54,412 nucleotides of DNA. Source: an uncultured Lentisphaerota bacterium. GTDB taxonomy: Bacteria; Verrucomicrobiota; Kiritimatiellia; CAIQIC01. A program made the position numbers and the translations under genes. The notes beneath the pieces are model-generated. The model did not search any database. It was not told where the DNA came from and saw only the letters and a program-made list of their open reading frames with translations. Positions 11,910-54,286 of this stretch are shown here, one piece after another. The stretch spans positions 1 to 54,412 of the forward strand of contig CAISWQ010000069.1 in NCBI GenBank assembly GCA_903889245.1. The letters are read 5' to 3'. Position 1 is the stretch's first letter. The number at the start of each line of letters is the position of its first letter.

Positions 11910-12965
11910 TTACTGGGTGGCAGGAGCGGTGGCGGGAGCGCCGCCGAGCCCGGGCACGGCCTGGAAGATGAAGTTGGCGGCCATCTGGCCGGCCTGCGCG
12001 CCGACACCGCCGAAGAACGCGCCGCCCGCGGCGGTGATGGTGGCACCGACGATGCCCTTGAGCTTGGCGCTCCAACTATCCTTCTCCTGCTCGATCGCCT
12101 GCTTCTCGTTGTCGGCCAGCCGCTGCGCGTGGTTCTTCATGGCCTCGGCTTCGGCGGATGCCTCGGCCTGTTTCTTGGAGGCATATTCCTGCTCGGCAGC
12201 CTGCCGCTCGGCGGCGACCTGCGCCATCGCCTCCTGGGCCTCCTTGACTGCGCGTTCGCGCCGTTCCTTGCGCTGCGCGCCGAAGGCCTCCAGCGGATTG
12301 CTCCCCGGCGCAGCCTCGTCCTCGGGCTTGAATTCCGGCATCGGCGCTTCGGCGCTGGCGAGCTGCTGCGCGACGGTCTTCTGCGGCGGCGGCGCGACGC
12401 GCGCGTCCGAAACCGCCAAGGCCGCGGTGGCGTCGCGCGCGAGCCACACGTTCAGCGGCGGCATGTTCGGCGTGCGGCTTTTCAACTGCAACCAGGTCTG
12501 GACGTCGGCGAGAAATTTCGAGCTGGCCTGGATGTCCGGTTGCAGCCAGGCGTTCAAGCCCAGTTGCCGCAGTGCGGCGTAATCGGCGGGCAAGGGGGGA
12601 CGCGCGCCGAGGACGCCGCAGAGTTCGCGCAGATAACCCGCATCATTGTTCTTTTCCGCCTCGGTATAGGTGGCAAAAAACTGCTCAAACTTCGGGCGGC
12701 CCTGCTCGCCGAAGTGCAGCACAAGATCCTGCCGGACCACCTCCATGCGCTGACCGTTCCAACCCGTCACCGCGGCCTGCACCGCGGCAGCATCGCTCTT
12801 GGGCAACGGCGCGGTCATGGTCTGCACCTGCGCAGCAACCTGCTGCGTGAGAAGGTAGCGGTAGTAGGAGCGCAGCAGCACAACGGCGTCGGGCGCCCGC
12901 GCGACCATGGCGCAGATCGGCGCAACACACGTGAACAGCAGCATCACACTCATCCATTTTTTCAT
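11910..12965 (-). CDS. Exported coiled-coil protein with glycine-zipper C-terminus
   Basis: A 351-residue protein with a Sec signal peptide (1-20, MKKWMSVMLLFTCVAPICA). A mostly helical region follows to about residue 230, then a charged coiled coil (about 235-305, rich in KERRERAVKEAQEAM-type heptads). The C-terminal stretch is small-residue-rich (GATITAAGGAFFGGVGAQAG), resembling the glycine-zipper segments of the four paralogues upstream. The function is unknown. It is the last gene of the ten-gene minus-strand locus and starts 19 bp after the preceding lipoprotein gene, with GGGAG as ribosome site. Confidence 0.75.
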   Translation of the reverse strand: MKKWMSVMLLFTCVAPICAMVARAPDAVVLLRSYYRYLLTQQVAAQVQTMTAPLPKSDAAAVQAAVTGWNGQRMEVVRQDLVLHFGEQGRPKFEQFFATYTEAEKNNDAGYLRELCGVLGARPPLPADYAALRQLGLNAWLQPDIQASSKFLADVQTWLQLKSRTPNMPPLNVWLARDATAALAVSDARVAPPPQKTVAQQLASAEAPMPEFKPEDEAAPGSNPLEAFGAQRKERRERAVKEAQEAMAQVAAERQAAEQEYASKKQAEASAEAEAMKNHAQRLADNEKQAIEQEKDSWSAKLKGIVGATITAAGGAFFGGVGAQAGQMAANFIFQAVPGLGGAPATAPATQ

Positions 12966-12984: not shown

Positions 12985-13935
12985 TCACTGCGCCGCAACG
13001 GCGCGGAGGTCCACCTTGCCCGCACTGACGTTGAGCACCTGCAGCTTGAGCCCCTGCGGCGGCTTGAGCACGAGGGTCTCGGAAAACTCCTCGGCCGCAA
13101 GCGTGCTCTCGAGGTCGAACATCACCATGCCCGCGGTGTAATTACGCTGCACGATATTCTGGGCCTTGGTGCCCAGCCCGTGTAGCATCTCGCGCAGGGC
13201 CTTCAGCTTCCAGATCTGGTCCACGCCGCCGATGGTGAGCGAGATGCGTGTCAGCGCCAGTTCGCTGCCGCCGACGCCGCCGCTCTTCTCCCACGCCTCG
13301 ATCATCGCGGGGATCAGCGACTCGAAACTCTTCTGCCCGGCGGCGCGCAGCGCCTTGGCGCTGCCGCCGATGTCATCAAGCGCGACGACGGACACATCCT
13401 CGGAGGCCGAGGCGAGCGTCGCGGCGTTATCGGTGCGCACCGCGCGCAGCGTGGTGACGGCCTGGTAGGTGCGCAGGTTGCTATCGGCGATGCGCCGCGC
13501 GGAGGGCTTGGCGACGGCCTCGCCCATGATGACCACGTCGGCGCCGAACTGCATACCGAGCGCGGCCGCGCCGCGCGGGTCGCCGGCCATCTTCAGGAGC
13601 TGCTGGCTCTTGGCGATGTTGGCCTTGACCATGTCCTGGTCCACGACCGGGATGTTTTGCTGGAGCAGCAGCTTGGCGGCGAGCGCCTCGACCTCGGCGG
13701 TGGGGATCGAGCCGAGACTTTTCTCGTCCACCATCATCAGCACGCGCGGCAGCCGCGAGGTGGCGCGCAGCTTGATGCGGCCCTCGGCGCCAACCTCACC
13801 CGCCCCCGCCGCACCGCCTTCGCGGATAACCACGGTCTGGGTCGAGGTGCACCCGGCCATCAAGCCAAGCAACAACACGCCCATGAACCGCCGGCCCTGT
13901 CCCGCCAGCCCTGATTTTTGCCGCCTCTGCTTCAT
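12985..13935 (-). CDS. Exported lipoprotein with CsgG/FlgT-like alpha/beta domain
   Basis: A 316-residue protein with a lipoprotein signal and lipobox LMAGC. The next about 200 residues follow the pattern of CsgG/FlgT/LPP20-type domains: a strand RVLMMVDE, a helix with VPVVDQDMVKAN, then GADVVIMGEAVA and a following strand/helix. The C-terminal part (ETLVLKPPQGLKLQVLNV) may be a separate beta domain. Function unknown; assembly or outer-membrane association is plausible given two CsgG-like neighbours. GGAGG precedes ATG 13935; palindrome array 4 lies directly upstream. Confidence 0.6.
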   Translation of the reverse strand: MKQRRQKSGLAGQGRRFMGVLLLGLMAGCTSTQTVVIREGGAAGAGEVGAEGRIKLRATSRLPRVLMMVDEKSLGSIPTAEVEALAAKLLLQQNIPVVDQDMVKANIAKSQQLLKMAGDPRGAAALGMQFGADVVIMGEAVAKPSARRIADSNLRTYQAVTTLRAVRTDNAATLASASEDVSVVALDDIGGSAKALRAAGQKSFESLIPAMIEAWEKSGGVGGSELALTRISLTIGGVDQIWKLKALREMLHGLGTKAQNIVQRNYTAGMVMFDLESTLAAEEFSETLVLKPPQGLKLQVLNVSAGKVDLRAVAAQ

Positions 13936-14040: not shown

Positions 14041-14607
14041 TCAGTTCCATTTCTGATACAGCCCGCTCATCATCTCGTGGACAATCGCCCGGGCGTGCTC
14101 CGGCATGGTGACGTCCTTGCTGTCCGCGCGCTTGGCAAGGTCCACGCTCCAGATGATCTTGCTGTTCTTACAGTCAATCATGCGCGCAGTGACGCCGACG
14201 ACGGGATAGGGATGGCCGCGCTGGGCGACCGTCGCGTATTCATCCACGGTGCCGATAATGACGCCATCGGCGCCGAGCATGTTGCCGACCTCGGCGGCGC
14301 GCGAGGCGGAGAGACCGGCGAGCGCGAGCTCGGACTCGCTCAAGACCTGCGCCATGCGGCCGCGCTCGACCAATTCATATTTGCCGGAGCGCAGAATCTC
14401 GGTGACGAACAGATCGGAGACGGAGGTGCCAATCAACTCGGTCTGACCCTTGAAAGGCATGACCGCCACCTTGGTGATGGCGCCACGCGCCGGCGAGACG
14501 AAAACATTGGCGCGGCTGCGGCTGCCGCCAAAATATTCCTGCTCCGGCGTGGCACAACCCAGCCATCCCATCGCCAGCACAGCCACCAGCAGATTACGTT
14601 TGCTCAT
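14041..14607 (-). CDS. Stand-alone CsgG-like lipoprotein
   Basis: A 188-residue lipoprotein (signal MSKRNLLVAVLAMGWLGC) with a CsgG-type domain: KVAVMPFKGQTELIGTSVSD, the helix of LFVTEILRSGKYELVERGRM, a Gln/Glu helix QVLSESELALAG, and GADGVIIGTVDEYATV. CsgG forms the outer-membrane export channel for curli; shorter relatives such as LpoB regulate cell-wall synthases. The protein lacks the long beta-hairpins of true CsgG (about 260 residues), so pore formation is doubtful. It is a close paralogue of the N-terminal domain of the FN3 protein encoded at 30092-34342, sharing long identical runs. Confidence 0.8.
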   Translation of the reverse strand: MSKRNLLVAVLAMGWLGCATPEQEYFGGSRSRANVFVSPARGAITKVAVMPFKGQTELIGTSVSDLFVTEILRSGKYELVERGRMAQVLSESELALAGLSASRAAEVGNMLGADGVIIGTVDEYATVAQRGHPYPVVGVTARMIDCKNSKIIWSVDLAKRADSKDVTMPEHARAIVHEMMSGLYQKWN

Positions 14608-14622
14608 AGACGGTTCCTCGGT

Positions 14623-15894
14623 TCAGCGAATATAGCCGACACACTTGGGGCAACCGGTCAGCGCGCCCCGGCCATAATATTTCCCATGGCGCGGGCAAGA
14701 CTGAACCCAGTGCATGGGACTACCCGCCTGCACGCCTTCGCCCAGCGCAGCCTTGGTCTCCAGCGTCTTGACGCCCTTTTGGAAAACTTCCGCGTCAACA
14801 TGGTACTGCGGTTGCGCGATGCGGCGGTCCCGACCTGCGGCCTGTTGCTGCATGTTTGGCAGACTCACCGCCGGACCGGTGTTCGGGATGGCCGGCCGGC
14901 CTTCGGTCTGGTACTGCTTGGGCGGCAGATAGGGTTTGCCATCGGTCTGATATCTCGTATTCGGGACGTAGGCGCGCTTGCTGGCCGAGCGGAACGCGCT
15001 CATCTCGGCGGCAGCTTCCATGTTGGCGGATACCGGCGCGGCCGCCGGCGCATCAACAGGCGGCGCGCCCACAGCCGGAGTGGCCGCCGGCGCCGCACCG
15101 CCACCGCCAAAAATCTGTCCGGCTGCCGCGCTGGCCCCAGCCGTCGCATCACCAGCGCCACTGCCAATGCTGCCACCGCTACCCGGGGCCGAACCCGCCA
15201 CGCCGCGCATACGGCCGGCCGCACCGCCGCCGATCGCCTGACCCGCAGCCTGCGCGCCTTGCTGAACACTTTGCACCAAACTATCGCCCAGCACAGCACC
15301 CATGCCGCCCGCGGCCTGCTGCGACGCTGCGCTAGCCGCGTCCTGCTGCCGCTGCGCCAGCGCCGAGGCGCCGGCTTGATTACGAAGATTCTGCGCCTCG
15401 CGCAGCTTGGCTTCGCTCTCGCGCGCAGCGTTGTCCATCTCCTGTTGAACCTTGACCAAGCCCAGGGACGACATCGCCTTCGCCGAAGCTTCGGCATCGC
15501 GCCCCTTGGAGAAATTCTGCAGCACCGCACTCCCGCCCACCGCTACGTTCGCCGGCAGGGGCGCCGCCTCGGCTTCCGCCAGAGTATGCGCTGACGCAGC
15601 CGGTGGCGCCGCAGGCACCACCATGTTCATTTTCTTGACCTCGGCAATAGTCAGTCCGCGCTGATTCCACTCGAGCAGATGCTGGATGGATGGCTTACGT
15701 TCCGCCGGTGTATTGCCATCATTGAGCATATCCAGCAGGGCTCCGCGTTCCGCTGTTAGTTGCCGGATATGGGTATCGCCACCCCTGGCTTCAGTTTCAG
15801 GCACGCCTTGTGCGTACCCCTGCCCCAGCGACCACCACAACAGCCCCAACCCTGCCACCACTAAGCGCCAGCCCTGATTGCCTGTTGTTTTCAT
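14623..15894 (-). CDS. Exported paralogue P1: helical region, glycine zipper, zinc-binding tail
   Basis: A 423-residue protein with a signal peptide (1-29). The shared architecture is: helix with LTAERGALLDML (45-57), LLEWNQRG (73-80), LAEAEAAPLPANVAVGG (105-121), FSKGRDAEAS (128-137), a charged helix RESEAKLREAQ (158-168), and a Gln/Ala/Gly segment with glycine-zipper spacing (GAQAAGQAIGGGAAG, 213-227). A Gly/Ala/Pro variable region leads to a C-terminal C-x2-H...C-x2-C motif (Cys400, His403, Cys415, Cys418; CPRHGKYYGRG then GCPKC). The function is unknown. It is the last of four tandem paralogues, and the next gene, csgG-like, starts 15 bp downstream. The start uses GAGG before ATG 15894. 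Confidence 0.8.
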   Translation of the reverse strand: MKTTGNQGWRLVVAGLGLLWWSLGQGYAQGVPETEARGGDTHIRQLTAERGALLDMLNDGNTPAERKPSIQHLLEWNQRGLTIAEVKKMNMVVPAAPPAASAHTLAEAEAAPLPANVAVGGSAVLQNFSKGRDAEASAKAMSSLGLVKVQQEMDNAARESEAKLREAQNLRNQAGASALAQRQQDAASAASQQAAGGMGAVLGDSLVQSVQQGAQAAGQAIGGGAAGRMRGVAGSAPGSGGSIGSGAGDATAGASAAAGQIFGGGGAAPAATPAVGAPPVDAPAAAPVSANMEAAAEMSAFRSASKRAYVPNTRYQTDGKPYLPPKQYQTEGRPAIPNTGPAVSLPNMQQQAAGRDRRIAQPQYHVDAEVFQKGVKTLETKAALGEGVQAGSPMHWVQSCPRHGKYYGRGALTGCPKCVGYIR

Positions 15895-15973
15895 TTTGCC
15901 TCGCGGCTGCATCCTATACACTTCACCCTTCTTCTGAAATCCCTTTTATGACCCGGCCTGGAATATTTTCCAT

Positions 15974-17350
15974 TCACTTGGCATCCCGGATGATCCATTT
16001 CTTGCACTTGGGACAACCTGTAATGGGCCCCTGCCCTCCGTACGCGCCATGACTGGGACAAACCGCATCCCACATCATGTACTTCTCCTGCTCGCACCGC
16101 GGACAGGCGGTGCCTCTGCTGATGTCGCCACCATATTTACCATGCTTGGGACAAACTGCGTCGAACAGGCCGCGTACGCGGCCTGCCGCAGCCCCTGATG
16201 TCCGCAACGCGCCGGCGGCGCCGCTACCCGCCACAATCCGATCCGCGGCTGGGCGCGCGGCCACGCCCCCCGCGCTGGCACCCGCACCCGCCACATTCCG
16301 ATGGCCCGTCGGATATTCATCTCTTCGTATCGTCTGGGCCCGCCGCGTACCGCTCGCAGATTCGGGTCCCGCGCCCTGCACCCGTTGCCACGGCTCCGGC
16401 CCATCGAGCCGCTTGCCGACGGCGCGCTTCGCGCTGCCCTCGCCCATCGCGCTGGCCTCAAAGCCGATGGTCGCGGGCACTGGATTGGCCACGGGTTCTG
16501 CCCCGCCGCCTTGTCCGCTGCCAACCGCGGCCGGCGCAGCAGACGCACCGCCCCCGAAGATTTGTCCGGCGGCCGTGCTTGCGCCGACCGCATCGCCAGC
16601 GCCACCGCCGATGGCGCCGCCAGCGCCCGAGGCAGAGCCCGCCACACCGCTCATGCGCCCGGCCGCACCGCCACCAATCGCCTGGCCGGCGGCCTGCGCT
16701 CCCTGCTGCACACTCTGCACGAGGCTCTCGCCCATCACCGCGCCAAGTCCGCCCGCGGCCTGCTGCGAGGCCGCGCTCGCCGCGTCCTGCTGGCGCTGCG
16801 CCAGCGCCGAGGCGCCCGCTGCGTTGCGGACCTGCTGCGCCTCGCGCAGCTTCGCCTCGCTCTCGCGCGTGGCATTCTCCATCTCCTGCTGTGTCTTCAC
16901 CAAGCCGAGCGACGCCGATGAACGCGCCGCGGCTTCCGCATCACGCCCCTTGGAAAAATTCTGGAGCAAGGCGCCACTGCCCACATTGACGTTGGCGGGG
17001 AGCGGCGCGGCCTCGGCTTCCGCCAGATTGTTGGGGGGCGGCGTGGTGGCCGCCACGGCCGGCGGTGCGGAAGGTGCCATCAAGGCCTGCCGCTGTTTGA
17101 ACTCGCCGATAGTCATACCACGCGTGTTCCATTCGAGCAGTTGCTGGATCAAGGCCCGCTTCTCCGCCGGCGTGTTCGCATCGTCCAGCATCGCCTGCAA
17201 GGCCGCGCGCTCGGCGGTCAACTGTTGCGCGTGCAAGGCCGCGCCCTCGCCTTCAACACCGGCCGCCGCCTGTGCCTGCGCCGGCGGCAGGCTCATCAAC
17301 AACTGGCCCAAGGCCCAACACGCACACAAAACCATCCCGTTCATTTTCAT
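15974..17350 (-). CDS. Exported paralogue P2
   Basis: A 458-residue protein with signal peptide ending near AQAQA (about 27). The first about 250 residues follow P1 closely, with nearly identical runs in the helix and glycine-zipper part (ASALAQRQQDAASAASQQAA; GESLVQSVQQGAQAAGQAIG). The middle (about 250-380) is unrelated in detail to the other copies. The tail carries two CPxHGxYGG...CPxC units, one about 40 residues after the other. GAGGTGAG precedes ATG 17350. Confidence 0.8.
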   Translation of the reverse strand: MKMNGMVLCACWALGQLLMSLPPAQAQAAAGVEGEGAALHAQQLTAERAALQAMLDDANTPAEKRALIQQLLEWNTRGMTIGEFKQRQALMAPSAPPAVAATTPPPNNLAEAEAAPLPANVNVGSGALLQNFSKGRDAEAAARSSASLGLVKTQQEMENATRESEAKLREAQQVRNAAGASALAQRQQDAASAASQQAAGGLGAVMGESLVQSVQQGAQAAGQAIGGGAAGRMSGVAGSASGAGGAIGGGAGDAVGASTAAGQIFGGGASAAPAAVGSGQGGGAEPVANPVPATIGFEASAMGEGSAKRAVGKRLDGPEPWQRVQGAGPESASGTRRAQTIRRDEYPTGHRNVAGAGASAGGVAARPAADRIVAGSGAAGALRTSGAAAGRVRGLFDAVCPKHGKYGGDISRGTACPRCEQEKYMMWDAVCPSHGAYGGQGPITGCPKCKKWIIRDAK

Positions 17351-17378
17351 TTTCTCACCTCACCCTTGCGCCTCATCA

Positions 17379-17425
17379 TTTCCAAGCCTTGGAAAATTCA
17401 TCCCTCTTTTTCCCAAACCCTGGAA
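17379..17425. repeat. Palindrome array 5 (two units)
   Basis: Centres at 17387 (CCAAGCCTTGG) and 17418 (CCAAACCCTGG), spaced 31 bp, in the 96-bp gap between paralogues P3 and P2. Confidence 0.88.
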
Positions 17426-17446
17426 CCTCATCACCAGCCATGGTTT

Positions 17447-18907
17447 TCAGCGAATATAGCCCGGCCGGGGCAATAGCTTCGCGCACTTGGGGCAGCCGGT
17501 GACCGGCCCGCGCCCGCCATATTTGCCGTGAATCTGGCAGAACGCATCCCACATCTGATATTTCTCCGCCTCGCACCGCGGACAACCTTTAACCTTGCCG
17601 ACCTCGCCGCCGTATTTGCCGTGCTTGGGACAAACCGCATCGAACACGCCCTGCGACCGCGGGACGTAGACTTTCTTGCTGGCGGCCGCCGGCTCGACCC
17701 ACGCCTGCACATTGGCCACCGAGTGGTCTAACGTCCTTCTGGCCTTTGTATCCATGGCTTTGTTCACATGCTGCTCCGCTTGCACGACGCTTCTTCCGAT
17801 TTGACCACGTTGTGTATCCAACGTATTAGCTGTGGCTCGTTTTTGCTGAATGGCGACACCATCTATGCGGCCTATGTGTTGCGCAACGGCCGCCGACTTT
17901 CTGGCATCCAGGGCTACATCGTCCAAACGACCGACCACGTGTCGCGCGCCAGCTTTGTACTGTTGGAGACCCACCCGCGCACCGATGGCCATGGTGGCGT
18001 TCTCATCCACCGCCACGCCGCCACCATCAGCGCCACCGCCGACCGGCGCAGTACCCATCGCCGGCTCGACCGCCGGCGCCCCGCCACCGAAGATTTGTCC
18101 TGCCGCCGCGCTCGCCCCGGCCGAGGCCGCGCCGCCAAGCGCATCGCCCATACCGCCACCGCCGCCGGCCGCAGCACCGCCGCTGGACACGGTCTGACCA
18201 AGCGCGCCGCCCATACGACCGACCGCGCCTCCGCCGATCGCCTGACCCGCGGCCTGCGCGCCCTGCTGTACGCTCTGCACGAGGCTGTCGCCGAGCACGG
18301 CACCCAGCCCGCCCGCCGCCTGCTGCGACGCCGCGCTCGCTGCGTCTTGCTGACGTTGCGCCAAGGCCGTCGCACCGGCGGCGTTGCGGATTTGCTGTGC
18401 CTCGCGCAGCTTGGCCTCGCTCTCGCGCGTGGCCTGCTCCAGGCCTTGCTGCACTTTGACCAGACCCAGCGACGAGGCCGCCTTGGACGAGGACTCGGCA
18501 TCGCGGCCCTTGGAGAAACTCTGGAGCATCGAGCCACCGCCCACGTTGACGTTGGCGGGCAACGGCGCGGCCTCGGCCTCGGCAAGGTTGTTCGCCGGCG
18601 GAGGCGTACCCACCACCACGGCCTGCGGTTGCAGCGCGGGTTCGTCCGCCCGCTGGGCCTGCCGCTGCTTGAACTCGCCGATGGTCACGCCACGCGTGTT
18701 CCAGTCGAGCAGTTGCTGGATCAGCGCTCGCTTATCAGCCGGCGTGTTGGCGTCGTCGAGCATCGCCTGTAACGTGCTGCGCTCGGTCGCCAGTTGTTCG
18801 ACGTGCGTGACCTCGCCGGCCTGCCCGGCACCGGTCTGGGCCAGTCCCGTCACCATCCAGCACAGGCCCAGCAACCCACCCAGCACTCCCGCCATGGTTG
18901 ACTTCAT
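17447..18907 (-). CDS. Exported paralogue P3
   Basis: A 486-residue protein with a signal peptide (about 1-24, ending at GLAQ). The conserved head runs to about residue 240, including SFSKGRDAES, RESEAKLREAQQIRN and GDSLVQSVQQGAQAAGQAIG. The variable region from about 290 to 400 is polar and differs from P1, P2 and P4 (Gln, Arg, Asp-rich). The tail has two zinc-binding units, CPKHGKYGG...CPRC and CQIHGKYGG...CPKC; in the second the first Pro is changed. AGGAG precedes ATG 18907. Confidence 0.8.
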   Translation of the reverse strand: MKSTMAGVLGGLLGLCWMVTGLAQTGAGQAGEVTHVEQLATERSTLQAMLDDANTPADKRALIQQLLDWNTRGVTIGEFKQRQAQRADEPALQPQAVVVGTPPPANNLAEAEAAPLPANVNVGGGSMLQSFSKGRDAESSSKAASSLGLVKVQQGLEQATRESEAKLREAQQIRNAAGATALAQRQQDAASAASQQAAGGLGAVLGDSLVQSVQQGAQAAGQAIGGGAVGRMGGALGQTVSSGGAAAGGGGGMGDALGGAASAGASAAAGQIFGGGAPAVEPAMGTAPVGGGADGGGVAVDENATMAIGARVGLQQYKAGARHVVGRLDDVALDARKSAAVAQHIGRIDGVAIQQKRATANTLDTQRGQIGRSVVQAEQHVNKAMDTKARRTLDHSVANVQAWVEPAAASKKVYVPRSQGVFDAVCPKHGKYGGEVGKVKGCPRCEAEKYQMWDAFCQIHGKYGGRGPVTGCPKCAKLLPRPGYIR

Positions 18908-18991
18908 AGAGCTACTCCTGTTCAGCAAACAAAGCCCGATCCGACCAACCACCAAACGCGCGCGCCGCGCCTTTAGCGTGCGCCATCATAG

Positions 18992-20401
18992 TCATCTGAT
19001 CATCACGCCACTCGGCGGCACCACCCGGATTTTGCGGATTTCCTCGGTGTAGCATTGCGGGCAGCCCTCGCGCGAACGGCCCACGCGTCCGTGCCGGGGA
19101 CAATCCATGTACATCAAATCCTCGCGCTGGCATTTGGCGCAGATGTGCATGTGCTTGGCCATGACGCCGGGATCAGGATTGGCGCAGATATCGCAGCGAT
19201 AGGTGGACCGGCAGCGACCACAGGTCACCTGCCCGCGGCCGCTCTGCGCGGTCAGCGGGCCACGCTGGCATTTGGCACAGAGGTGATCGTGCTTGGCGCG
19301 TGAACCGCCGGCGCACAGGTTGCACTTGAACGGCTGCTTGCAGCCGCGGCAGGTCATCCAGCCCGCCTCTTTGCCGGCGGGCGCCGCCATGCGCCGCGTC
19401 ACCAGTTTGTCGCTTGACTGGTATTCCGCCTCCCTGATCCTGACATGCGCGGGCATTTTCTGGACAGGCGTGTATTCCTCGCTGATCTTCTTGCCCGTTT
19501 CTGTGTACACGCGTCGTTCGCGATTACGGGTGACATCCATCATCGCTTCCGACTGTGCCGCCACGCCGCCCTCGCCAGCCATCGCAGGACCAGCGGCGGG
19601 CATCGCCTCGCCTCCGGCCGCAGCCGGGGAAGCCGGCGTACCACCGAAGATTTGTCCGGCAGCCGCGCTGGCACCCGCGACCGCACCACCAGCAGCCTCA
19701 CCGCCAGCCGCAGTTCCACCGGCGGAGCCGAGCCCGCCACCCATGCGACCCGCTGCGCCGCCGCCCATCGCCTGACCGGCGGCCTGCGCGCCCTGCTGTA
19801 CGCTCTGCACGAGACTCTCGCCCATCACGGCGCCGATGCCGGTCGCCGCCTGCTGCGAAGCCGCGCTCGCCGCGTCCTGCTGCCGCTGCGCCAGAGCCGA
19901 GGCGCCGGCCGCGTTACGGATTTGCTGCGCCTCGCGCAGCTTGGCCTCGCTCTCGCGCGTCGCCGTCTCCAGGCTCTGTTGCGACTTGACCAGGCCCAGC
20001 GAAGCCGCTGCCTTCGAGGACGCCTCTGTCTCGCGGCCCTTGGAAAAACTTTGCAGCAGCGCGCCGCCGCCCACGTTGACGTTCGCCGGCAGCGGCGCGG
20101 CCTCGGCTTCCGCCAGATTGGGCGCGGGTGGCGGCGCGGCCACGGGCGGCGGTGCGGCCTGTCGTTGCTTGAACTCGGCGATGGTCACGCCACGCGCGTT
20201 CCACTCCAGCAACGTCCGGATGAGCGCCCGTTTTTCCGGCGGCGTATTGGCGTCATCGAGCATCGCCTGCCACGCGCTGCGCTCGGCCGCGAGTTGTTGG
20301 GCGAGAATACCGACCGCCCGTGAATCAACATCCTGACCCCTGCTCCAAAGGTCAGAGCCAATCCATATAACCAAGCCAATCAATCCAAGCAGCTTTTTCA
20401 T
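18992..20401 (-). CDS. Exported paralogue P4 with multiple Cys-rich zinc fingers
   Basis: A 469-residue protein and the first of the four paralogues in transcription order. Signal/anchor residues 5-22. The conserved head (QQLAAERSAWQAMLDDAN, LAEAEAAPLPANVNVGGG, GESLVQSVQQGAQAAGQAMG) matches P1-P3. The C-terminal about 110 residues hold five Cys motifs: CRGCKQPFKCNLC, CAKCQRG, CGRCRSTYRCDIC, CAKCQRE and CPRHGRVGR...CPQC. The doubled C-x2-C-x6-C-x2-C arrangement looks like a small two-finger domain absent from the other copies. Role unknown. The ribosome site is weak (GAGAG close to ATG 20401), so the start could be the earlier ATG 20437. Confidence 0.78.
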   Translation of the reverse strand: MKKLLGLIGLVIWIGSDLWSRGQDVDSRAVGILAQQLAAERSAWQAMLDDANTPPEKRALIRTLLEWNARGVTIAEFKQRQAAPPPVAAPPPAPNLAEAEAAPLPANVNVGGGALLQSFSKGRETEASSKAAASLGLVKSQQSLETATRESEAKLREAQQIRNAAGASALAQRQQDAASAASQQAATGIGAVMGESLVQSVQQGAQAAGQAMGGGAAGRMGGGLGSAGGTAAGGEAAGGAVAGASAAAGQIFGGTPASPAAAGGEAMPAAGPAMAGEGGVAAQSEAMMDVTRNRERRVYTETGKKISEEYTPVQKMPAHVRIREAEYQSSDKLVTRRMAAPAGKEAGWMTCRGCKQPFKCNLCAGGSRAKHDHLCAKCQRGPLTAQSGRGQVTCGRCRSTYRCDICANPDPGVMAKHMHICAKCQREDLMYMDCPRHGRVGRSREGCPQCYTEEIRKIRVVPPSGVMIR

Positions 20402-20502
20402 CTTCTCTCTCGCAGTCTTGGAAGCCCCATTTCTCATCCTGGTACCACAGGGGCAACGAGCGCCCTAAGACCTCGCACCGCCGGCACCGAGAGGGGATGA
20501 GC

Positions 20503-23500
20503 TTATTTCATATTTAACACATTCTTGATCTGATCCAACGTCGGCGCGGGCGCGAGCGACGGTGGCACCGCCGCCCCTGAAAGGTCAAGGGGGGGGATAT
20601 TAATGGTGATATCTTTCAAGCTTAAGGAGCCACCGCACATCGGACACCTGGAGGGTTGCGCCGCGGGCTGCTTGGCATTGAACCAAGCCCCATTTGAGTT
20701 TTTCCCCGTGACCGCGCACCCGATGCAGTAGCGCAATTTGTCGTAACGGTTCCCATCCAGCAGAACCAAGCAGCCTCCTTTGCTAGGCGGCTTGGGAGCA
20801 CTGCCACCGCCCGGAGGCGCAACCGTATTGACACTACGGCATTTCGGGCAACGCGCAGTGCCTTGGCTGGCAGGCCACGTTGCGCCGCAGCGGGCACAGG
20901 AGGACATTGCCGTGACATTAGCTCCACTCTTTTGTGGTAGGCCCCCACCTCCATCCGGCTCGGAGCCTCTGGCGGGACCCGTGTTTGCCGTGGTGGAGGC
21001 CTGATCGCCCTGTCCGCACTTCGGGCACTTGGGCGGAGCCGGCGGAGGGCCGGTGAACGTATTCCCGCAGGAATAGACCACCGTGATCGTGCCATCGGGA
21101 TTGGTCGTGCTGCCGACGATGCCCTGATCGCCTCCTCCGCCACCGCCACCTCCTCCTCCCCCGCCAGAACCATCACCACCGCCACCACCACCGGGCGGCA
21201 TACCGCCCCCGCCATCACCACCGCCGGGATCTCCGCCGCCGCCGCTCCCCGTACTGGTTCCCCCCGGACCATCACTGGCGCTACCCGGCCCGCTGCCGCC
21301 AGAGCCATCGCCACTGCCATCGCCGCCTTGGTCAGGCGGCTTGGTGCCCTGCATGACATTCTTCACCACGTTGGCTCCAGCCCCGCCAACGGCATCGCCA
21401 AAATTTTTCCCGCCTTGTGTCAGTGAATCCACCAGTGAGTTGCCCAGGATGCTGCCCCAACTATTGGCGTTCTGCGACTGCGCCAGCAATTGCGCCGCCT
21501 GCGAACGGGTCAGGCGGCCCTGATAACCGGCGGCTTCGAGGGTGTTCTTGATCTGGTTATAAACATCGTAGGAGACCCAGTTGGCCTTCACATCCTTCGA
21601 CTGCACGTCCAGATTCGCCAAGGCCGAGGTGGTGTTCTTGGCTTTCTCGGCATCGAAGTTGCCCATGACGCCCGCCAGCACCGACACCTGTGGGATCTTG
21701 ATGTTTTTCCCATCGCCTGCGTTCGGCTCCATGCCGGACAGCGTCGGGTCGCCCTGCCCCAGCGCATTCAGCAGTTTGTTGTTATCGTTCATGTCGTTGC
21801 CCAGGCCGTTCAGCTTGTTGAACTTGTCCTGTAACTGGTTCATCAGCTCTTTTTTCTCCGACGAATTGTGCGAGGCGAAAATCTGCGCCTGCAACTTGGC
21901 AATGTCATCGCCCAACCCGCCGGCTTGATTCGAGATCTGCCAGTTGTTGTTGTTGAGCTGATTGGCGTTATAGCCGTCGGCGGTGGCCGGCTTGCCAGTG
22001 TCATCATAGGTGACCTTGGGCGGCGTCACGCCCGGCGTATAATTTACACCCAAGTCCTGTAATTCTTTCTGTGTCGCACTGACACGACTATTGTAGTCGT
22101 CCTTGGTTTTCTGCAACTCCGCCAGTTGCGCCCGGAGGTCTTTCTTCTGGGAACTGTCGTGCGAATCGTTGATCTGCTGCTGGAGCGCATCCATCTTCTT
22201 TTGTGTGTCGTCACCCCAGCCGTTCATGCTGTCGGCATAATTCTGGAGCCGGCGTTTCTTGTCGGCATCCGGATCGGGCGGCGGTTCCGGCGGCATCTGT
22301 TCCACGGGTTCCGGTTTGTCCGGGAACAAATTCAGCGCTTTTTGGATGGGGCTTTCCGGGCCTGTATTACCTGCGGTATCCAGCCGGTTTTTCTTCATGA
22401 GTTCATCGGTCAATTGATTGGCCAGTTGCGCACGTTCTTCCGGGGTGAGCTTGCGGGTGGTTGGCGTGGAAGGTGTGGTTGCGGAGGTGGTTTGGTCGCC
22501 ACCGGTGGCATCCTTGATTTTTTCCGCGATAGCCTGATTCACGAAAGCGGCGGCTTCCTTGTCCGTGAGCAGCCCTAGCTTCTTCAGGTTCTCCGCTTCC
22601 TGCATGATCTTGTTGAAATCATCCAGCTTGTCGCCGGCAGACTTGGTCCAGTCCTTGACGGTCTTCACCCCGGGCAGGGAATCCGGCAGCAAGCCCAAAT
22701 ATCCCGCGCCGGAGGCATTGCCGGACTGCTGGGCATTTGCGGAGCCGGCCATGGATGAATCGCCGGAACCATCTGGACGGGACTGTGGCGATTGCAGACC
22801 TGCAGAAGACGAGCGATTTCCTAGACCGGCCAAGTCGGTACGGGCCTGTTTCTTCTGCTCCTCGTCGCCGTACTGCAAGGCTTGGTAGAGATCACCCAGT
22901 TGGGCCTTCTTGGTGGGATCACTCTCCGTTTCCCACCGGTCCTTGATGTCGCTGATTTTTTGCTGGTCTGTCGTGCTCAAGGGCGCATAGCGGGAGGGCA
23001 AATCCGGTAGTGGCGTCTGGGCCTTGAGCTGTTGCTGCTGTTTGTAGGTTTCGAGTTGCTGATGCGCCTTAAGTCGCTCCTCGTTATTCCCAACCTTGAG
23101 GTCCACATAAAGTTTGTTAAGCATCATTGCGTCATCACTGCCGGGGCGTGTTTTGTTAACCAAGGCATCTATATCGCCCATATCCTTGTTGGCGGTGGCG
23201 CCCAGATTGGCGCTATTGAGGATCATATCTCCACGGCCAAGCGCCGACGGTCCTTTGCCCACCGACGCCATCAGTTGATCCCTGGTGACACCAGGAGCCA
23301 GTGAAATTTCGCCACTATCGAGCTTGCGGTTGTACATGTCCTGCACATTCTTGATCTGCTGCTCGCTCATCTTCACGGCGTTGTGCTCTTCCAGCTTGGC
23401 TTGGCCCAGTTTGCCAGCCTCGTAGCCGGCCTGGCCGACGGCGACGCCGGAGGCGAGCACCATGCCGCCCGGGGTGGCGGCAACTATCATGCCGCCCGCG

Positions 23501-26500
23501 CCCATGGCGATCAGGTTCTTGGCCGCCGCATCCATCTCGTCAAATTTCTTGTTGGCCTCGGCATCGGTGATGTTCTTCCATTGGCCTTTGCGGACATCAT
23601 AGACATCGGTGCCCGCATTTGCGTAGTTATAGCCCTGATGACCAGCCTCCAGGATGATGATGCCCTTGCCAGCCTTATCCAATACGTTTTGTCCGCTCCA
23701 TTTTCCCTCACCACTGTTAAGCCACTGCCGCGCACCGGAGGAGCCCGCCGGCGCCTCGGTAGTGGCCCCCAATTGTTGCATCAGTTTCGCGTCCGCTCCC
23801 TGGACATTCTGCTCCCATCCTTGGAGCGCGCCACGGACCGAACTGGCACCCTTACCCACCGCATCGAGACCGCGGGACATGGCTCCGGGCTCGTCCGGGG
23901 CCACAAAACTGGACTTGCCGCCATCCAGCAGCGACTTCGGTGGTCCACCCCTGGAGGAGGAGCCCTCTGCAATGGTCACATTCGCGGCTTCGTGTCCGAC
24001 AGGCCGGGTTGGATTGTTGAGATCAATCCTGGGAGCCCCCTCCGGTTTCTTCATCTGGTTCAGCTCAATCCGGTCACGCACATTTTGCACGAAGGGATCC
24101 GGTCCACCACCGGCCATAGGGCCACCTTTGGAACCTCCGCCCGGCTTTAGCTTATCCAAGGCCTCCACCAAGCCAGCGTTCTTTTGGATGATACTATCAG
24201 GTGTTTCACCCATACCGGCCAGTTGTTGACGCGCCTCGCCGGGACTAAGGTTCCCGTCCTTGACTCTCTGCAAAATATCCATCCCCTTCTGGACATGTTC
24301 GGGAATCTGGGCGCGAACATCGCTGCCCTGCGCAGCCAACTGCGTATTCTTCTGATCAACGTAACCCGGCCGGTAATTGCCTTGGGCATCCTTGCCGCCC
24401 TTGATGAAATCATTCATCTTCGCGCCTTGGCGCATTTGCTCCATCTCCCAAGGCTCCATTTGCACCGTTGGCTGGTTACCCTTTTGCGCATCCAGTCCTT
24501 TATTACGTGCGATATCGCTCTTGTGTTGCATGGCTTTGGACACCTGCGCCGGATCGTTGAATTGTTGCGGCACCTCGCCCTTGGCAAGTTGCTGGCCGGT
24601 CTTGGGGGAATTGTCAAAGGCCTCCGGATGCAGGTGGTCCGTGGTCATCACACCCAGATGATCAGCAACACCGTGCGGCGTCTGCGGTACGCCACGCGAA
24701 GTGGCCAGCGGTGAACCGGGTTTGCCTTTGGTCGTGTTGTAGGTGGCCTGCTCGACAATCGGGCGCGCATCCTTGGCGGGCACTTCTATCGTTCGTCCAT
24801 CTGCGGTCTTCACCTTCACCGTATGATCCCAATCCTGCCCCACTTTGGGAGCATCACCGGGTTTGCGGGAAGTCATATCGTCAACCACCACACGACTGGT
24901 GTCCGGCGTGCCGTCAGGCTTCAACAGGTTATACTTCTTGGCAATCTCTGTCTTGACCTGCTCCCGGATGTTGTTTTTGACGCCATCTGTGGCATCCACG
25001 TGCGCCTGCTTGACCTCCGGTGAGGAGTTCTTGTTCATGCGTTGCACAGCGAGAGGGTCCGACTGTACTTCCAAGGCGAGCTGCGCCTTGTTCCCCCTGC
25101 CATACTTCACCGCGTCTTCAAAGTTCTTGATCTTGGCATCCGCGATCTGCTCCGCCTGTTGCCAAGTGGCCGCGCGATCACCTACGCGCGGCCCGGTCTG
25201 TGGGTCCTGCGGCCAAAATGTGGCGGCCGACGGTCCCCTGGGGGGCTGCGGTGGTGGCCCCTTGCCCTTCGAGTTCTTCCACTGCTCCACGGCGGCATGA
25301 TATTCCTCCACCTGCTGTTGGTTTTGGAAGAGCCCTCCACTCGCTTTGACCATCTCAGGATCAACGGTCACGGGCCGGGTCTTTCCGGTAGGCGGCGGTT
25401 GCGCATTGCGCGCATCGGAGGCCGCCTTGGCGAAGTCGGCAGCGCGCTTCTGCTGGGCGGCGATCGCCCGGTCGGCCGCCTGCTGCGCCGCCTGGATTTC
25501 CTTGGGCGAATTACCGGAAGAGGCGGCCTGCTGCTTGAATTTCTCCAGCTTGGCAATAGCTTCGTCCGGCGTGTTGTGGGGATCAAAGACTTCTGACTTC
25601 AGCCCATCGCCATGCTTGCCCATATCGCGCACTTGCTTCTTCTGATACGCGGCCAGTTCCTCTTGCTCCAAAGCGCTCAAATGACCTTTGAGTTTTTGGG
25701 AGGCTTCGTTCTTCATCTGCTGCAAGGCAGCTTGGTGCTCTGGCGAACCTGGGGCCACATAGCGCGTGCCATCGTTGGGCGGACGCGGGCCTTGCGGCCC
25801 ACCCGCCGCAGCCGTACTGGCCGGCGGAGTCGGTGGCCGCGAAGGCGGCGGACGCTGATTCCCCGGATGACCATCCAGCGTACCCAACGTCCGGCCTGTT
25901 TCATTGACATTCCCCAAGGTCACTTCAGAACCCGTGACCGGCGGACGCCCCTGCGTCGGCGGGCGATTGCCGGGATGACCGTCCAATGTTCCCAGTGTGC
26001 GGCCCGGATCCGTAGCATTGCCCAGTGTCACTTCGGAACCTGTGACCGGCGGACGTCCCTGCGTTTGCGGACGATTGCCCGGATGACCATCCAACGTGCC
26101 CAACGTCCGGCCCGAATCCATCGGTTGGTTCAATCCCGATGGAGGCGGCCCCTTGCCGGTGGGACCGGCCGTTGTGCTGTGCGGCTGATTACCAGATCGC
26201 GTACCGGGGACAGCCTGCGCGGTGGGTTCTGGCCGCGGACCAGTTGTGGACACCGTCCCGTGCCCCGTGGCCGCAGCACTGCCTTCCGGTTTGTACACTT
26301 GCTGGGCGCGCTGGGCAAAACCTTTGGCCTCTTGAAATTTCCCATTCTTGGTTTCGTAAAACACGACCTTGTTCTTCAGGCGTTCCCAATTCTCTATGAC
26401 GTAACGCAACTCCGTGGATGTGACCTTATCCATATGCGCCTCACCACGCAGGATCTTTTCCACATCCTGCATATGTGTGAGGTCGAAGCGAATCTTGCCA

Positions 26501-29364: not shown

Positions 29365-29483
29365 GGCTACCACTCCTGCCTATTCACGCCCAAACACCAT
29401 CGGGACACACCACAGCCCGACGACGCATAGTCCGCCCCTTCCCTGCAAATTTCAAGCGGTATTTGGCAGCTTTTTGGTGGCGG

Positions 29484-30080
29484 TTATTGCCGCTGGCGGA
29501 GGGCTTTTGTGATGCGGTCGAAGAGGTCGCGGTAGGCTTCCGGCAAATCCACGCCCACCGCCTGTTCCGCCGGCGGCGCGTGGATCAGCACGCTGCGGCC
29601 ACGGCGATACCAGGTGCCGTCCTGTTCCTCATAATAGGACATCGCGGGCAGCGTGCCGCGCTGGGTCAGCACAATCCGCTGCCGGGTCTGGCTCCCGCCC
29701 TGCCACGGCTCGGTGTGGATGACCAGTTCCTGCCAGCGCGCCCACTTCTTGGTGATATCGGCGTGTAGCCGCGTGGTCGCGTGCCGCGTCTGCAAATTCA
29801 GCTCGCGCTCGTCCTCCGGCCCGAGCGACTCGTTCTTGCGCGCGGTCGCGGCGCGGATCAGCCCGGCAGGCTTATCCACCGCCTCCAGTTTCCAGCCGAG
29901 GTCCTGCAAGACGGAGATCGTCGCGGCGAACACAGCGTCCAGCCGGCCGGTATGGATCATCGTCTGCATCGCGGCGCGGTCGGCGGGCGCGAGCGCCTTC
30001 ATCTCCACGGCTTGCGGCGCCGGCGTCCGGCAGCCCGCAAGTAACGCCACCAGCGCCAGACCGGACAGCATTTTCTTCAT
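29484..30080 (-). CDS. Small exported lipoprotein, unknown function
   Basis: A 198-residue protein with lipoprotein signal MKKMLSGLALVALLAGC and lipobox LLAGC (Cys17). The mature part has a helix with AVFAATISVLQDLGWKLEAVDK, then beta-rich stretches (TTRLHADITK, RQRIVLTQRG), and a C-terminal amphipathic helix (EAYRDLFDRITKALRQ). This layout, a helix plus strands testing sequence position-dependent cell-envelope folding, resembles small NlpC/BamC-like envelope lipoproteins, but no family is identified. The start 30080 has AGGAAA upstream; an ATG at 30095 overlapping the preceding stop is an alternative. The FN3 gene ends 11 bp upstream. Confidence 0.65.
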   Translation of the reverse strand: MKKMLSGLALVALLAGCRTPAPQAVEMKALAPADRAAMQTMIHTGRLDAVFAATISVLQDLGWKLEAVDKPAGLIRAATARKNESLGPEDERELNLQTRHATTRLHADITKKWARWQELVIHTEPWQGGSQTRQRIVLTQRGTLPAMSYYEEQDGTWYRRGRSVLIHAPPAEQAVGVDLPEAYRDLFDRITKALRQRQ

Positions 30081-30091
30081 GACGGTTTCCT

Positions 30092-33000
30092 TCATTTCTT
30101 TTCCGCCGGTGGCGCGACTTCCAGCGGCGCGCTCCTGGCGCTCTCTAGTTTTTCGGCATCCACCGCGCTGACCAGCACGCGCAGACCCTTGCCCACCTGC
30201 TCCGAAGTCAACACACAGGTGTTCGCCTCGACCGTCGTGAGCAGGTCCGCGCCAAAGAAGGTTTTCTTCCACACCTTATAGACCTTGATATCGGGCGAGG
30301 GCGAGGCCGCCCACGTGAGCGTGACCTGCGCCGCCTGCCATTGCGCGGCGAGGTTCTGCGGCGCAACGGGCAGCGGGCGCGACGCGCCGGCGACCACGTC
30401 ACTCCAGCCGCTCTCCAGTTCATCGCGGTCAATGGCCTTGACGCGGTAGCAACGCGCCTCGCCATCGCCGAGGCCCGTTTCGGCGGCGGCCATTTTTTCA
30501 TCGGCCGTGGCGTTGACGCGCGCGACCTCGCGGAAGCGCGCGCCGGCGTTGGCGGCCGCCTCGACCACATAGCAGGCGATATCGCTCTCTGGATTCGCGC
30601 GCCACACGAGCTTGACCTGCTTGGCCAACCCCGCCGTCGCGGCCAGCTCACGCGGTACAGCGGGCGCGGGCTTCGTCACCGCCGCCACCGGCTCCGATGG
30701 CGCGGACCGGACGCGCGCGGTGTTGAACGCCACAACTTGGTAGCGGTATTCGGTCTTGTCGCCCAACTGACCGAGACCGCGCCGCGCGCCGCCGCGGTCC
30801 AGATGGCTGGCGACCTCGCGCCCCTGCACGGTGGCGATGTTGGTGTAGACGTTCTCGCCGGGCGCGAGCCGCAGAATGTCGTAGCCGATCACCTTCTCGT
30901 CAGGCGAGGCTTCCCACGCCACGGGGATTTCGCGCGGCCGGCCGCCCTTGGCCTTGACGCCGGCGACCACCGGCGGCGCACCGCGCGTCGTCGCCTGCGC
31001 GATGTCGGAATCCGCGCTCTCCGCGGTGACGCCGTTGATCGCGCGGATCCGGTATTCATAGCCGCGTTCGTCGGCGAGGTTGCCGGGATCGGCGCCGCCA
31101 TCGAGATAGCTGGTTTTCGCGCGCCCCTCGACGCTGGCGATTTTTTCAAACGCGCGGTCCGCGGCGTCGCGCCGGAAGAGTTCATAGCGCACCACGTCGG
31201 GTTCGGGGCTGGGCGACCACGCCAGCGGCACACAGCGCACTTCGCCACTCTTCGCCACGAAGTTGCGCACGACCGCCGGCGGCGGCCGCGTCGTCACCTC
31301 CGCCACCTCGGAGACCGGCCCGGCAACGCCGAGCCGGTTGACCGTGGTGATGCGGTAGAGATACTTCGTGCTGTCCTTCAGTTCGGACTGCGGCGTGCCG
31401 CCCTCCTTGAACTCGGTGTCCTTGACCTCGCCGAGTTTCTGGAACTGGTCGGGCGTCGCGCCCGCAGCGCGCTCGACGACGTACTTCGCCACCCAGTCGG
31501 CCGTCGAGGCCTTCCACGTCACGCGCACCGCGCGCGAGGCGGAGGCCTCCGCGTCCACGCTGGCCGGCGGCGCGGGCGGCGGCTGTGTCGTCACCACCAC
31601 CGGCTGGCTGGGCGCGCCGCTGCTGCCAACGCGATTGATCGCGGTGACGCGGTAGCCATACTTCGTGCTGTCCTGCAGTGCGGTCTGTTCCGTGCCGCCC
31701 TCCTCAAAGACGGTGTCCTTGAGGTCCGCGACCTTGACGAATTTTTCCGGCTGCTCCGCCGACGCGCGCTCCACGACATATTTCACCACGCCCTCGCTCG
31801 GCGAAGCCAGCCAGGTCACCTTCAGTTTGCGCGGCCCGCTGGCCTCGGCCTTGACCTCCGGCGGCGGCGCGGGCGGCGGCGCGGTCAGCCCGGCGGCGAC
31901 GGCGCCGGCCTCGCTCTCGCGCCCGTTGGCCGCGAGGGCGACGAGCCGGTAGAAGTAGGGCTTCGCGTCGCCGAGCGGTGCCTGTTCGAGGCCGGCGTCG
32001 CGATACTCGCCATCGCCCGGCGCGACCTTGGCGACGATGCCGAAGGGTTCATCGCTGGCCTCGGCGCGCTCAATGCGATACTGCTTCGCGTTGTCATCGG
32101 GCTTGCGCCAGCGCAGCACGACCTCGCGCAGGCCGTTGGTCGTCGCGGTCAGCTCCAGCGGCACCGGCGGCGGCGGCTCTTCCAGTTCGAGCGGCACGCC
32201 CGGCGCGCTCTCCAGGCCATCCGCCTCGATCGCCGTCAGCACCACGGTCAGCCGCTTGCCCACGTCGCCAAAGCGCAGCACGAACTCCGGCTTCGCCGTT
32301 GTGCCGAGCGGTTCCTTCTCGCCCTTCTTCCAGACGCGATAGGTTGTGATGTCCTTGAGCGGCGGCTGCCACGCGAGCTTGATCAGGCCCGGCCGGTACT
32401 CCACCGCAACCTTGTCGGGCGCGGGCGGCAGGGGCTTCGTCCGCGCCGGCGCGGGCGGCGACCACGGCCCCGGCAACGCGGTGTCGTTGAGCGCGCGCAC
32501 GCGATAGCGATAGGTGAAGTCGTCCTGTAACGCGCCCACGCCGGCCGGCTCCTTCGCCGCGCCGCGATCCATATAGGCCATCGTCTCGCGCCCTGTGACC
32601 TTGGTGAATTCCACGAACGGCCCATCGGCGCCCTCGCTGCGCTGGATTTCGTAGCCGAGCACCGTCGGGTCCGGCGAGGCCTTCCACGCCAGCCGTACCT
32701 CGCGCGGCAGGCCGGACGCAACCTGCACGCCGGCGACCGCGGGCGGCGCGCCGCGCGTCATGGCGGGGATTTCCACCGCCGTCGCGCTGATCACGCCGGC
32801 GGCGTTGACCGCGCGAAGCTGATAGCGATAGAGCGTGCCATCGGCGAGCTTCTCGTCCTTCCACGCCGTTGTGTTGCGGCCCTGCACCTGTGTCAGCGGC
32901 GCGTACTTCCCGCTCTTCGGGTCGGCGCGGTAAAGGTCATAACGCACCACGTCCTCTTCCGGGCTGGCCTTCCACACCAGCGTCACGCTGCGCAGTTCGC

Positions 33001-37817: not shown

Positions 37818-37902
37818 CATGGCCCCCACTGTTGCCGGGAGTCTAAAGACCACCCTTGTTGCGTCAAGGCATTTTCCTGACGCTGCGCGCGAGCTCCGCC
37901 GG

Positions 37903-37953
37903 TTTTCCAAGGCTTGGAAAAAGCAGGGCGCGGGCTGTCCAAGCTTTGGAAAA
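37903..37953. repeat. Palindrome array 8 (two units)
   Basis: Centres at 37912 (CCAAGGCTTGG) and 37944 (CCAAGCTTTGG), spaced 32 bp, in the gap between the PEP-CTERM gene stop and the kinase start. Confidence 0.88.
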
Positions 37954-53855: not shown

Positions 53856-54286
53856 GTCCCTGCTCCTTGCCACCGCCGTTTGGCTGGCACTGGCTACACC
53901 AAAACCCAGCGCCAAACAAGGAAAAGCTAAGCGGCGGCGCAACGCGCCGCCCTCCAGTGGAGGGCGAGCCGGGCCGCTACAGGGGAACAGCGAAGACGGG
54001 AGGACGCGAAGTCGAGCAGTTCTTCGCGCCTTCCGGCCTTCCCTGTTCCTCTTCTCTTCTTTTTCTGTCTCCCATTTTTCTGTCCACCTTCCGCTCTCGG
54101 CCCACAGCATCACCCACCGTGCGCACCTTCGATGTTCGATGTTGGATGTTCGGTGTTCGATGTTCGCTGCCCCATTCCCCTGTCCCCCTTCCTTGGCCTC
54201 CCCTCTTTTCCTGCCTTCCTGATTTCCTCATTCAAAATCCGAATGGCCGAAAAAAAAGAACAGCAGTGGATAGAAAAACCGGAGAC
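53856..54286. other. Gene-free region between the kinase gene and the right-hand IS
   Basis: This 431-bp stretch carries a cloverleaf-related segment at about 53928-53986 that resembles the flanks of copy A but lacks the 51-bp unit, and the right copy of the flanking direct repeat. The last 90 bases show nothing recognisable. It must contain the promoter of the kinase gene; none was identified. Confidence 0.7.
54041..54196. repeat. Direct repeat flanking the kinase/FGE gene, right copy
   Basis: Right partner of 49855-50010. Heptads at 54128-54166 are TTCGATG, TTCGATG, TTGGATG, TTCGGTG and TTCGATG: the same heptads in a different order from the left copy, as expected for slippage or unequal exchange. 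Confidence 0.88.

What the first reader, a model, noticed from the sequence alone, without database searches (positions are those of the whole stretch)
14623..20401. Four tandem paralogues with a constant head and a variable tail
P1 to P4 are nearly identical over a central segment of about 100 residues (ending GAQAAGQAIGGGAAG), then diverge completely before a zinc-binding end. The pattern of constant export/assembly part plus variable part plus metal-binding tail recalls antigenic or polymorphic effector families diversified by recombination. The near-identical DNA in the centre could support gene conversion.
Basis: partly seen in the sequence, partly recalled or inferred. Interest (0 to 1): 0.7.

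Follow-up and report, generated by a model that had tools for sequence, protein, structure and literature searches.

The report
Old cargo paralogues sharing a tail module
Four neighbouring bacterial genes that looked like rapidly recombining surface proteins are old, stable duplicates built around a helical segment that also occurs near the end of many otherwise unrelated large exported-type proteins, all encoded beside the same set of outer-membrane-type lipoproteins, which suggests an undescribed cargo-handling locus.

Summary
Four tandem paralogues (W1-W4, minus strand, 14623-20437) share a central ~125-residue segment (82-87% aa identity) and end in zinc ribbons.

The "near-identical DNA" is not there. 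The centre is 78-83% identical in DNA, dS is 0.65-1.13, and the longest shared run is 35 nt. Same-genus genome G002 has one-to-one orthologues of W1-W3 that keep the matching "variable" tails (48-63% aa between orthologues, 19-31% between paralogues). These are old, individually conserved duplicates, not a recently recombining antigen family. One old exchange in the centre remains possible.

The constant segment is a module also found near the C-terminus of 25 large "slot" proteins (75-304 residues from the end; cysteine pairs follow in 24 of 25). Their upstream parts fall into 9 unrelated groups, one of them RHS. The slot proteins lie beside CsgG/PelC-like lipoproteins, a 334-aa lipoprotein and a 396-aa protein that carries the module too. 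Module and 334-aa lipoprotein co-occur in 39 of 346 class genomes (Fisher 6e-44).

Best reading: the module docks exported cargo onto the lipoprotein machine, and W1-W4 are a genus-level set of small subunits. Docking is inferred; no function is shown.

The parts
14623..15909 (-). Paralogue W1 (P1): signal-peptide-like start, helical head, central module 15202-15582, own linker, one zinc ribbon (14641-14700)
   Evidence: module position; orthologue G2c in G002 (63% in the variable part)
15974..17350 (-). Paralogue W2 (P2): module 16646-17026, two zinc ribbons within 15977-16171
   Evidence: orthologue G2b (52% in the variable part)
17447..18907 (-). Paralogue W3 (P3): module 18200-18586, two zinc ribbons within 17450-17674; AlphaFold2 model made
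   Evidence: orthologue G2a (48% in the variable part)
18992..20437 (-). Paralogue W4 (P4): module 19736-20116, extended cysteine-rich tail 18995-19372; no orthologue in G002
   Evidence: tail module resembles the one in G2b
20503..29373 (-). Giant slot protein (2956 aa): variable N-terminal and middle parts (middle type A 24004-25203), conserved C-terminal part with module 21346-21741, then cysteine pairs
   Evidence: only its C-terminal 458 aa match the giant of same-genus G002 (76%)
29484..30098 (-). Small lipoprotein-like protein (lipobox LLAGC) of the locus
   Evidence: sequence; present in G002, G003, G006 loci
30092..34342 (-). CsgG/PelC-like lipoprotein followed by fibronectin-III-like repeats (1421 aa)
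   Evidence: sequence; its N-terminal domain is homologous to the 188-aa CsgG protein (E 1e-84)
14041..14607 (-). 188-aa CsgG/PelC/GNA1162-like lipoprotein
   Evidence: Pfam CsgG 3.4e-14; PDB profile hits GNA1162 and PelC
12985..13935 (-). 334-aa lipoprotein (lipobox LMAGC), distant CsgG-fold relative; marker gene of the locus
11910..12965 (-). 396-aa-ORF protein: helical head, LAxAEA motif, coiled coil, SW-glycine-zipper end; carries the same module (11961-12362) without zinc tail
   Evidence: hhalign probability 97.5, E 6e-12, 134 columns

Best explanation
W1-W4 are old duplicates within an operon-like envelope locus. Shown: the 'constant' segment is a module (predicted as a single ~100-residue helix, ending in a Gly-zipper-like stretch) that sits near the C-terminus of many otherwise unrelated large proteins. 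It is almost always followed by cysteine pairs and linked to CsgG/PelC-like lipoproteins, a 334-aa lipoprotein and a 396-aa protein that carries the module itself. Inferred: proteins with this module are exported by Sec (signal-peptide-like starts). The module helix then co-assembles with the matching helix of the 396-aa protein at a ring or scaffold of the lipoproteins on the outer membrane's periplasmic face, so it works as a C-terminal docking/sorting signal. The zinc ribbons form a small stable cap or ligand site. The giant slot protein is the main cargo (adhesin- or effector-like, exchangeable front part). W1-W4 are small, specialised companion subunits, each kept by selection for its own tail.
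For: Module hits in 40 of 346 class genomes, of which 39 also have the 334-aa lipoprotein (Fisher 6e-44); 41 of 51 module ORFs lie within 15 kb of it. In 25 slot proteins the module lies 75-304 residues from the C-terminus, with cysteine pairs after it in 24 and hardly any before it; upstream parts form 9 unrelated clusters, one with RHS repeats (E 1e-64). A profile built only from W1-W4-type proteins already finds slot proteins of other families. The module and the 396-aa protein are homologous over 134 columns, and the 396-aa protein was not in the module alignment. In same-genus loci the other locus genes compared are 74-87% identical while the giant's front part is unrelated. CsgG-type proteins match GNA1162 and PelC structures; PelC forms a 12-subunit periplasmic lipoprotein ring (PMC12141448). 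AF2: helical head pLDDT above 90, helix 121-220 at pLDDT about 52-89, disordered linker, ribbons.
Against: No component has a demonstrated function here. Helical, Ala/Gly-rich modules give compositional similarity, so some profile scores are inflated. Ten of 51 module ORFs are not within 15 kb of the lipoprotein (some lie at contig ends). No outer-membrane barrel was identified in the locus, so passage to the surface is unexplained. Docking to the 396-aa protein is inferred from shared homology only. The tail models are low confidence (pLDDT 34-70).
Confidence: 0.45

Rival explanations
1. Antigenic or polymorphic surface-protein family: a constant centre kept uniform by ongoing gene conversion, with tails diversified by recombination.
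For: Constant centre and paralogue-specific tails; loss of the orthology signal in the centre of the W1/W2/G2b/G2c quartet; W4's cysteine-rich tail resembles a piece in G2b, which suggests shuffling of zinc modules.
Against: Centre dS 0.65-1.13 between paralogues, about the same as orthologues 1.03-1.21; longest identical run 35 nt; tails conserved one-to-one in G002; no sign of copy turnover beyond 1-4 copies per genome in g1/g2.
Confidence: 0.06
2. Periplasmic structural or scaffold proteins: the module helices and zinc ribbons build a periplasm-spanning or outer-membrane-anchored lattice, with no cargo export at all.
For: All locus lipoproteins are PelC/GNA1162-like and periplasm-facing by homology; FN3 repeats and long helices suit a scaffold; no barrel was found in the locus.
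Against: Front parts of slot proteins are exchangeable and unrelated, including an RHS core, which suits cargo better than a scaffold.
Confidence: 0.3
3. Polymorphic toxin-like delivery: slot proteins are contact-dependent toxins (one has an RHS core) and W1-W4 are chaperones or companions sharing the docking module.
For: RHS repeats and a teneurin YD-shell match in one slot protein; different front parts at the orthologous site within one genus.
Against: The variable part lies upstream of the conserved C-terminal module, the reverse of usual C-terminal-toxin polymorphism; no toxin, nuclease or immunity family was recognised; the middle-type-A model has no PDB match at E below 0.5.
Confidence: 0.12

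Closest known systems
CsgG / PelC / GNA1162 outer-membrane lipoprotein families
   Same: The 188-aa protein and the head of the FN3 protein belong here by sequence (Pfam CsgG 3.4e-14; PDB profile hits GNA1162 4hrv 1.2e-5 and PelC 9h80 5.8e-5); lipobox present.
   Different: Pel and curli partners (PelB, CsgA/B/E/F) were not recognised among the window proteins scanned; here the lipoproteins sit with FN3 repeats, a 334-aa lipoprotein, a 396-aa protein and module-bearing cargo.
C-terminal sorting-domain systems (type IX secretion CTD, PEP-CTERM), from general knowledge
   Same: One conserved C-terminal region shared by otherwise unrelated exported-type proteins in the same genomes.
   Different: The module is a ~125-residue helical segment followed by zinc ribbons, not a beta-sandwich CTD nor a short transmembrane signal; no type IX component was sought or seen.
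RHS / polymorphic toxin proteins
   Same: One slot protein (G132) has RHS repeats; front parts differ at the same genomic site.
   Different: The conserved part is C-terminal and carries zinc ribbons; no toxin or immunity domain was recognised.

Membership tests
Antigenic-variation / gene-conversion families | Recent near-identity of the donor/acceptor segment at synonymous sites | tested here: not met
   dS 0.65-1.13 in the centre; longest identical run 35 nt
Antigenic-variation / gene-conversion families | Variable regions not orthologous between species | tested here: not met
   W1-G2c, W2-G2b, W3-G2a tails 48-63% aa against 19-31% for paralogues
Antigenic-variation / gene-conversion families | Phylogenetic conflict between centre and tails | tested here: inconclusive
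   One quartet loses the orthology signal in the centre (Fisher 1.6e-7), but species-type vs cross-type is p 0.21
CsgG/PelC-like lipoproteins (188-aa gene) | Sequence-profile match to the family and a lipobox | tested here: met
CsgG curli pore | Own transmembrane beta-hairpins (CsgG is longer) | tested here: inconclusive
   The 188-aa protein matches only positions 21-107 of 210 of the CsgG model and resembles the barrel-less PelC/GNA1162; hairpins not modelled
Curli system | CsgA/B-type amyloid repeats and CsgE/F partners | tested here: not met
   No such Pfam match in the window proteins scanned
RHS polymorphic toxins (slot protein of G132 only) | RHS repeats / YD-shell | tested here: met
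   PF05593 1.1e-64 above its cut-off; PF25023 YD-shell 1.8e-12, just under its cut-off
RHS polymorphic toxins (W1-W4 and window giant) | RHS core or a known toxin domain | tested here: not met
   No Pfam or NCBIfam toxin match for W1-W4 and the giant; no PADLOC match for W3 and the giant
C-terminal sorting-signal system | Module at the C-terminal end of unrelated proteins, co-occurring with a dedicated machinery | tested here: met
C-terminal sorting-signal system | Module required for localisation or export | not testable with these tools
   Needs an experiment

The most novel reading that the evidence does not exclude
An undescribed outer-envelope cargo system of this Verrucomicrobiota class (a close relative's record is titled uncultured Lentisphaerae): a ring or scaffold of CsgG/PelC-like lipoproteins plus a 396-aa helical adaptor recognises a C-terminal helical/zinc-ribbon module, and so presents or exports large exchangeable proteins, with W1-W4 as dedicated minor subunits.
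Probability: 0.3. Interest if true: 0.75.

Novelty: new variant of a known kind. Interest (0 to 1): 0.5.

Why it matters
If the docking reading is right, one short module predicts the cargo of an undescribed envelope machine in a poorly cultured bacterial class, and gives otherwise unannotated giant proteins a testable address. It also corrects a tempting misreading: strong protein-level constancy between tandem paralogues came from purifying selection on a shared functional module, not from recent gene conversion.

Tried and rejected
Recent gene conversion in the centre: rejected on synonymous divergence. Species-specific tails: rejected by the G002 orthologues. Known protein families for W1-W4: none in Pfam, NCBIfam or PDB by sequence, none in PADLOC for W3, and no phage record encodes a relative of W3; the best PDB profile hit (SUZ12, 0.004) is Gly/Ala low complexity. 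Foldseek on the W3 model and on the middle-type-A model of the giant gave no match at E below 0.5. NCBIfam SDR hits on the giant (6e-8, far below cut-off) cover a short stretch and look spurious. Zinc-ribbon naming in Pfam is weak and non-specific; two hits just above cut-off (PaaD zinc ribbon, DUF5472) in the multi-ribbon G003 relative. Literature searches on CsgG with Lentisphaerae, zinc ribbon with Lentisphaerae, and giant proteins or genes of these groups found no description of the locus. Consensus promoter scan: no sites; the terminator count is at chance.

Full report
Observation. The window is contig C69 of a 5.26 Mb draft genome. A same-genus genome, G002, corresponds to a record titled uncultured Lentisphaerae bacterium (CAIWHP010000117.1). 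On the minus strand lie four tandem reading frames: W4 20437-18992, W3 18955-17447, W2 17350-15974 and W1 15921-14623. They align over signal-peptide-like start, helical head, Pro-rich spacer, a 125-codon centre, a Gly-rich linker ending in AGASAAAGQIFGG, a paralogue-specific stretch, and zinc-ribbon-like ends. The centre is 82-87% identical in protein but only 78-83% in DNA.

Recombination test. Nei-Gojobori dS in the centre is 0.65-1.13 between window paralogues and 1.03-1.21 between W1-W3 and their G002 counterparts. The 'variable' part is 19-31% identical between paralogues but 48-63% between orthologues, with 56 position-fixed and 1 species-fixed site. Codon identity at synonymous positions in the centre is 0.52-0.65 for paralogues and 0.51-0.57 for orthologues (saturation about 0.41), and the longest identical run is 35 nt. 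So the paralogues are old, their centres are held by purifying selection, and the tails are inherited with their gene. One exception is not excluded. In the quartet W1/W2/G2b/G2c the centre gives 15 species-type, 5 orthology and 8 cross sites, against 19/105/18 elsewhere (Fisher 1.6e-7), and the G2b and G2c centres pair in the tree (bootstrap 85). Species-type over cross-type alone is p 0.21. One old exchange is possible.

Copy number. Profile search of 346 class genomes finds W-type proteins only in the genus (4 in the window genome, 3 in G002; one full-type copy plus one lacking the centre in G003) and a related fused protein in G004. G003's second copy has the same head, no central module and four zinc ribbons, so the parts are modular.

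The constant segment is a shared module. By blastp, the W centres match the C-terminal region of the 2956-aa giant gene upstream in the operon, and of giants in G002, G003, G004 and G048 (best about 7e-12). A module alignment (A8) shows the pattern L..(A/M)E(A/P)...L..F..R......QQ...A...GD...R.A...R.AGG..A......AA..A..Q...SWG...GDAL..G...GG.AFG.A.G..AA.....IFG. In 25 slot proteins the module lies 75-304 residues from the end, followed by CxxC/CxxH pairs in 24; cysteine pairs before it are rare. The parts upstream of the module fall into 9 clusters without detectable similarity. One (G132) contains RHS repeats (PF05593 1e-64). Another cluster shares a middle domain found in 9 class genomes, whose model (pLDDT 75) has no PDB relative.

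The locus. Component searches show a recurrent set: CsgG/PelC-like lipoprotein with FN3 repeats; sometimes a small lipoprotein; one to several slot proteins; a 188-aa CsgG-type lipoprotein; a 334-aa lipoprotein; a 396-aa-type protein. Not every genome has every piece. The 334-aa lipoprotein occurs in 45 of 346 class genomes (35 of 121 genera) and the module in 40. 39 genomes have both (Fisher 6e-44), and 41 of 51 module ORFs are within 15 kb of it. The 396-aa-type protein carries the same module (hhalign probability 97.5, E 6e-12 over 134 columns), with a similar head and LAxAEA motif. The 334-aa lipoprotein is a distant relative of the 188-aa CsgG-type lipoprotein (hhalign probability 87). 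The latter's best structural relatives are GNA1162 and PelC; PelC forms a ring of twelve lipoproteins on the periplasmic side of PelB (PMC12141448).

Where polymorphism really is. Between the window and G002 at the orthologous locus, the CsgG-FN3, CsgG, 334-aa and 396-aa proteins are 74-87% identical. The giant proteins match only in their C-terminal 458 residues (76%) and not in the 2217 and 1232 residues before. G003 carries one giant of each type at two loci. Cassette-like exchange thus affects the slot gene, not W1-W4.

Mechanism. Best-supported inference: the module is a C-terminal docking/sorting element. Proteins bearing it are Sec-exported, join the 396-aa protein through like helices, and are held at CsgG/PelC-like lipoproteins on the outer membrane's inner face; the zinc ribbons cap the end. 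In the AlphaFold2 model of W3 the head is a confident helical bundle, the centre is one long helix (residues 121-220), residues 222-400 are mostly low-confidence and two small ribbons end the chain (mean pLDDT 56). W1-W4 would be companion subunits with distinct tails. Shown: homology, position of the module, linkage, co-occurrence, age of the duplicates. Inferred: export, docking, zinc binding, role of the tails.

Limits. Genomes are draft assemblies, one per species, so within-species variation could not be tested. The module profile includes three W sequences and is Ala/Gly-rich; independent support comes from the W-only profile, the 396-aa proteins that were not in the profile, and gene linkage. 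No function is demonstrated.

Noticed in passing
window 154, 3610, 3672, 8396, 8490, 13952, 13984, 17380, 29216, 29248, 29312, 34448, 34500, 34531, 37905, 49363, 49394, 52129: Dispersed short palindromes of the type TTCCA-N5-TGGAA: 18 in the window against 0.16 expected in base shuffles, often in clusters near gene starts, three of them overlapping the 5' end of the giant gene. They look like a family of intergenic repeats; purpose unknown.
   Followed up: partly
window 27395-27849: 75-bp units in alternating (150-bp) tandem repeat inside the giant gene, 5 overlapping copies, alternate copies 92-94% alike (PPRTPDGRIDKSKLSGEITLTDVREL type).
   Followed up: no
window 25831-26112: 108-bp tandem repeat, about 3 copies, inside the giant gene (GRTLGTLDGHPGN type).
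   Followed up: no
window 37977-47159: 3060-aa autotransporter-like protein made of beta-repeat units, with a PEP-CTERM-like end (VIPEPATLNLLLLCALACGWRGLRRRLARR).
   Followed up: no
window 34554-37910 and 50718-54113: Two large Ser/Thr kinases, one with leucine-rich repeats and one with an FGE-sulfatase-type domain, near the locus.
   Followed up: no
L088 7928-13072 (G132): Slot protein with RHS repeats upstream of the C-terminal module and zinc pairs.
   Followed up: partly
L061 5419-13495 (G002:C11) and L084 (G000:C31): Second copies of the locus in G002 and a truncated one at a contig start in the window genome.
   Followed up: partly
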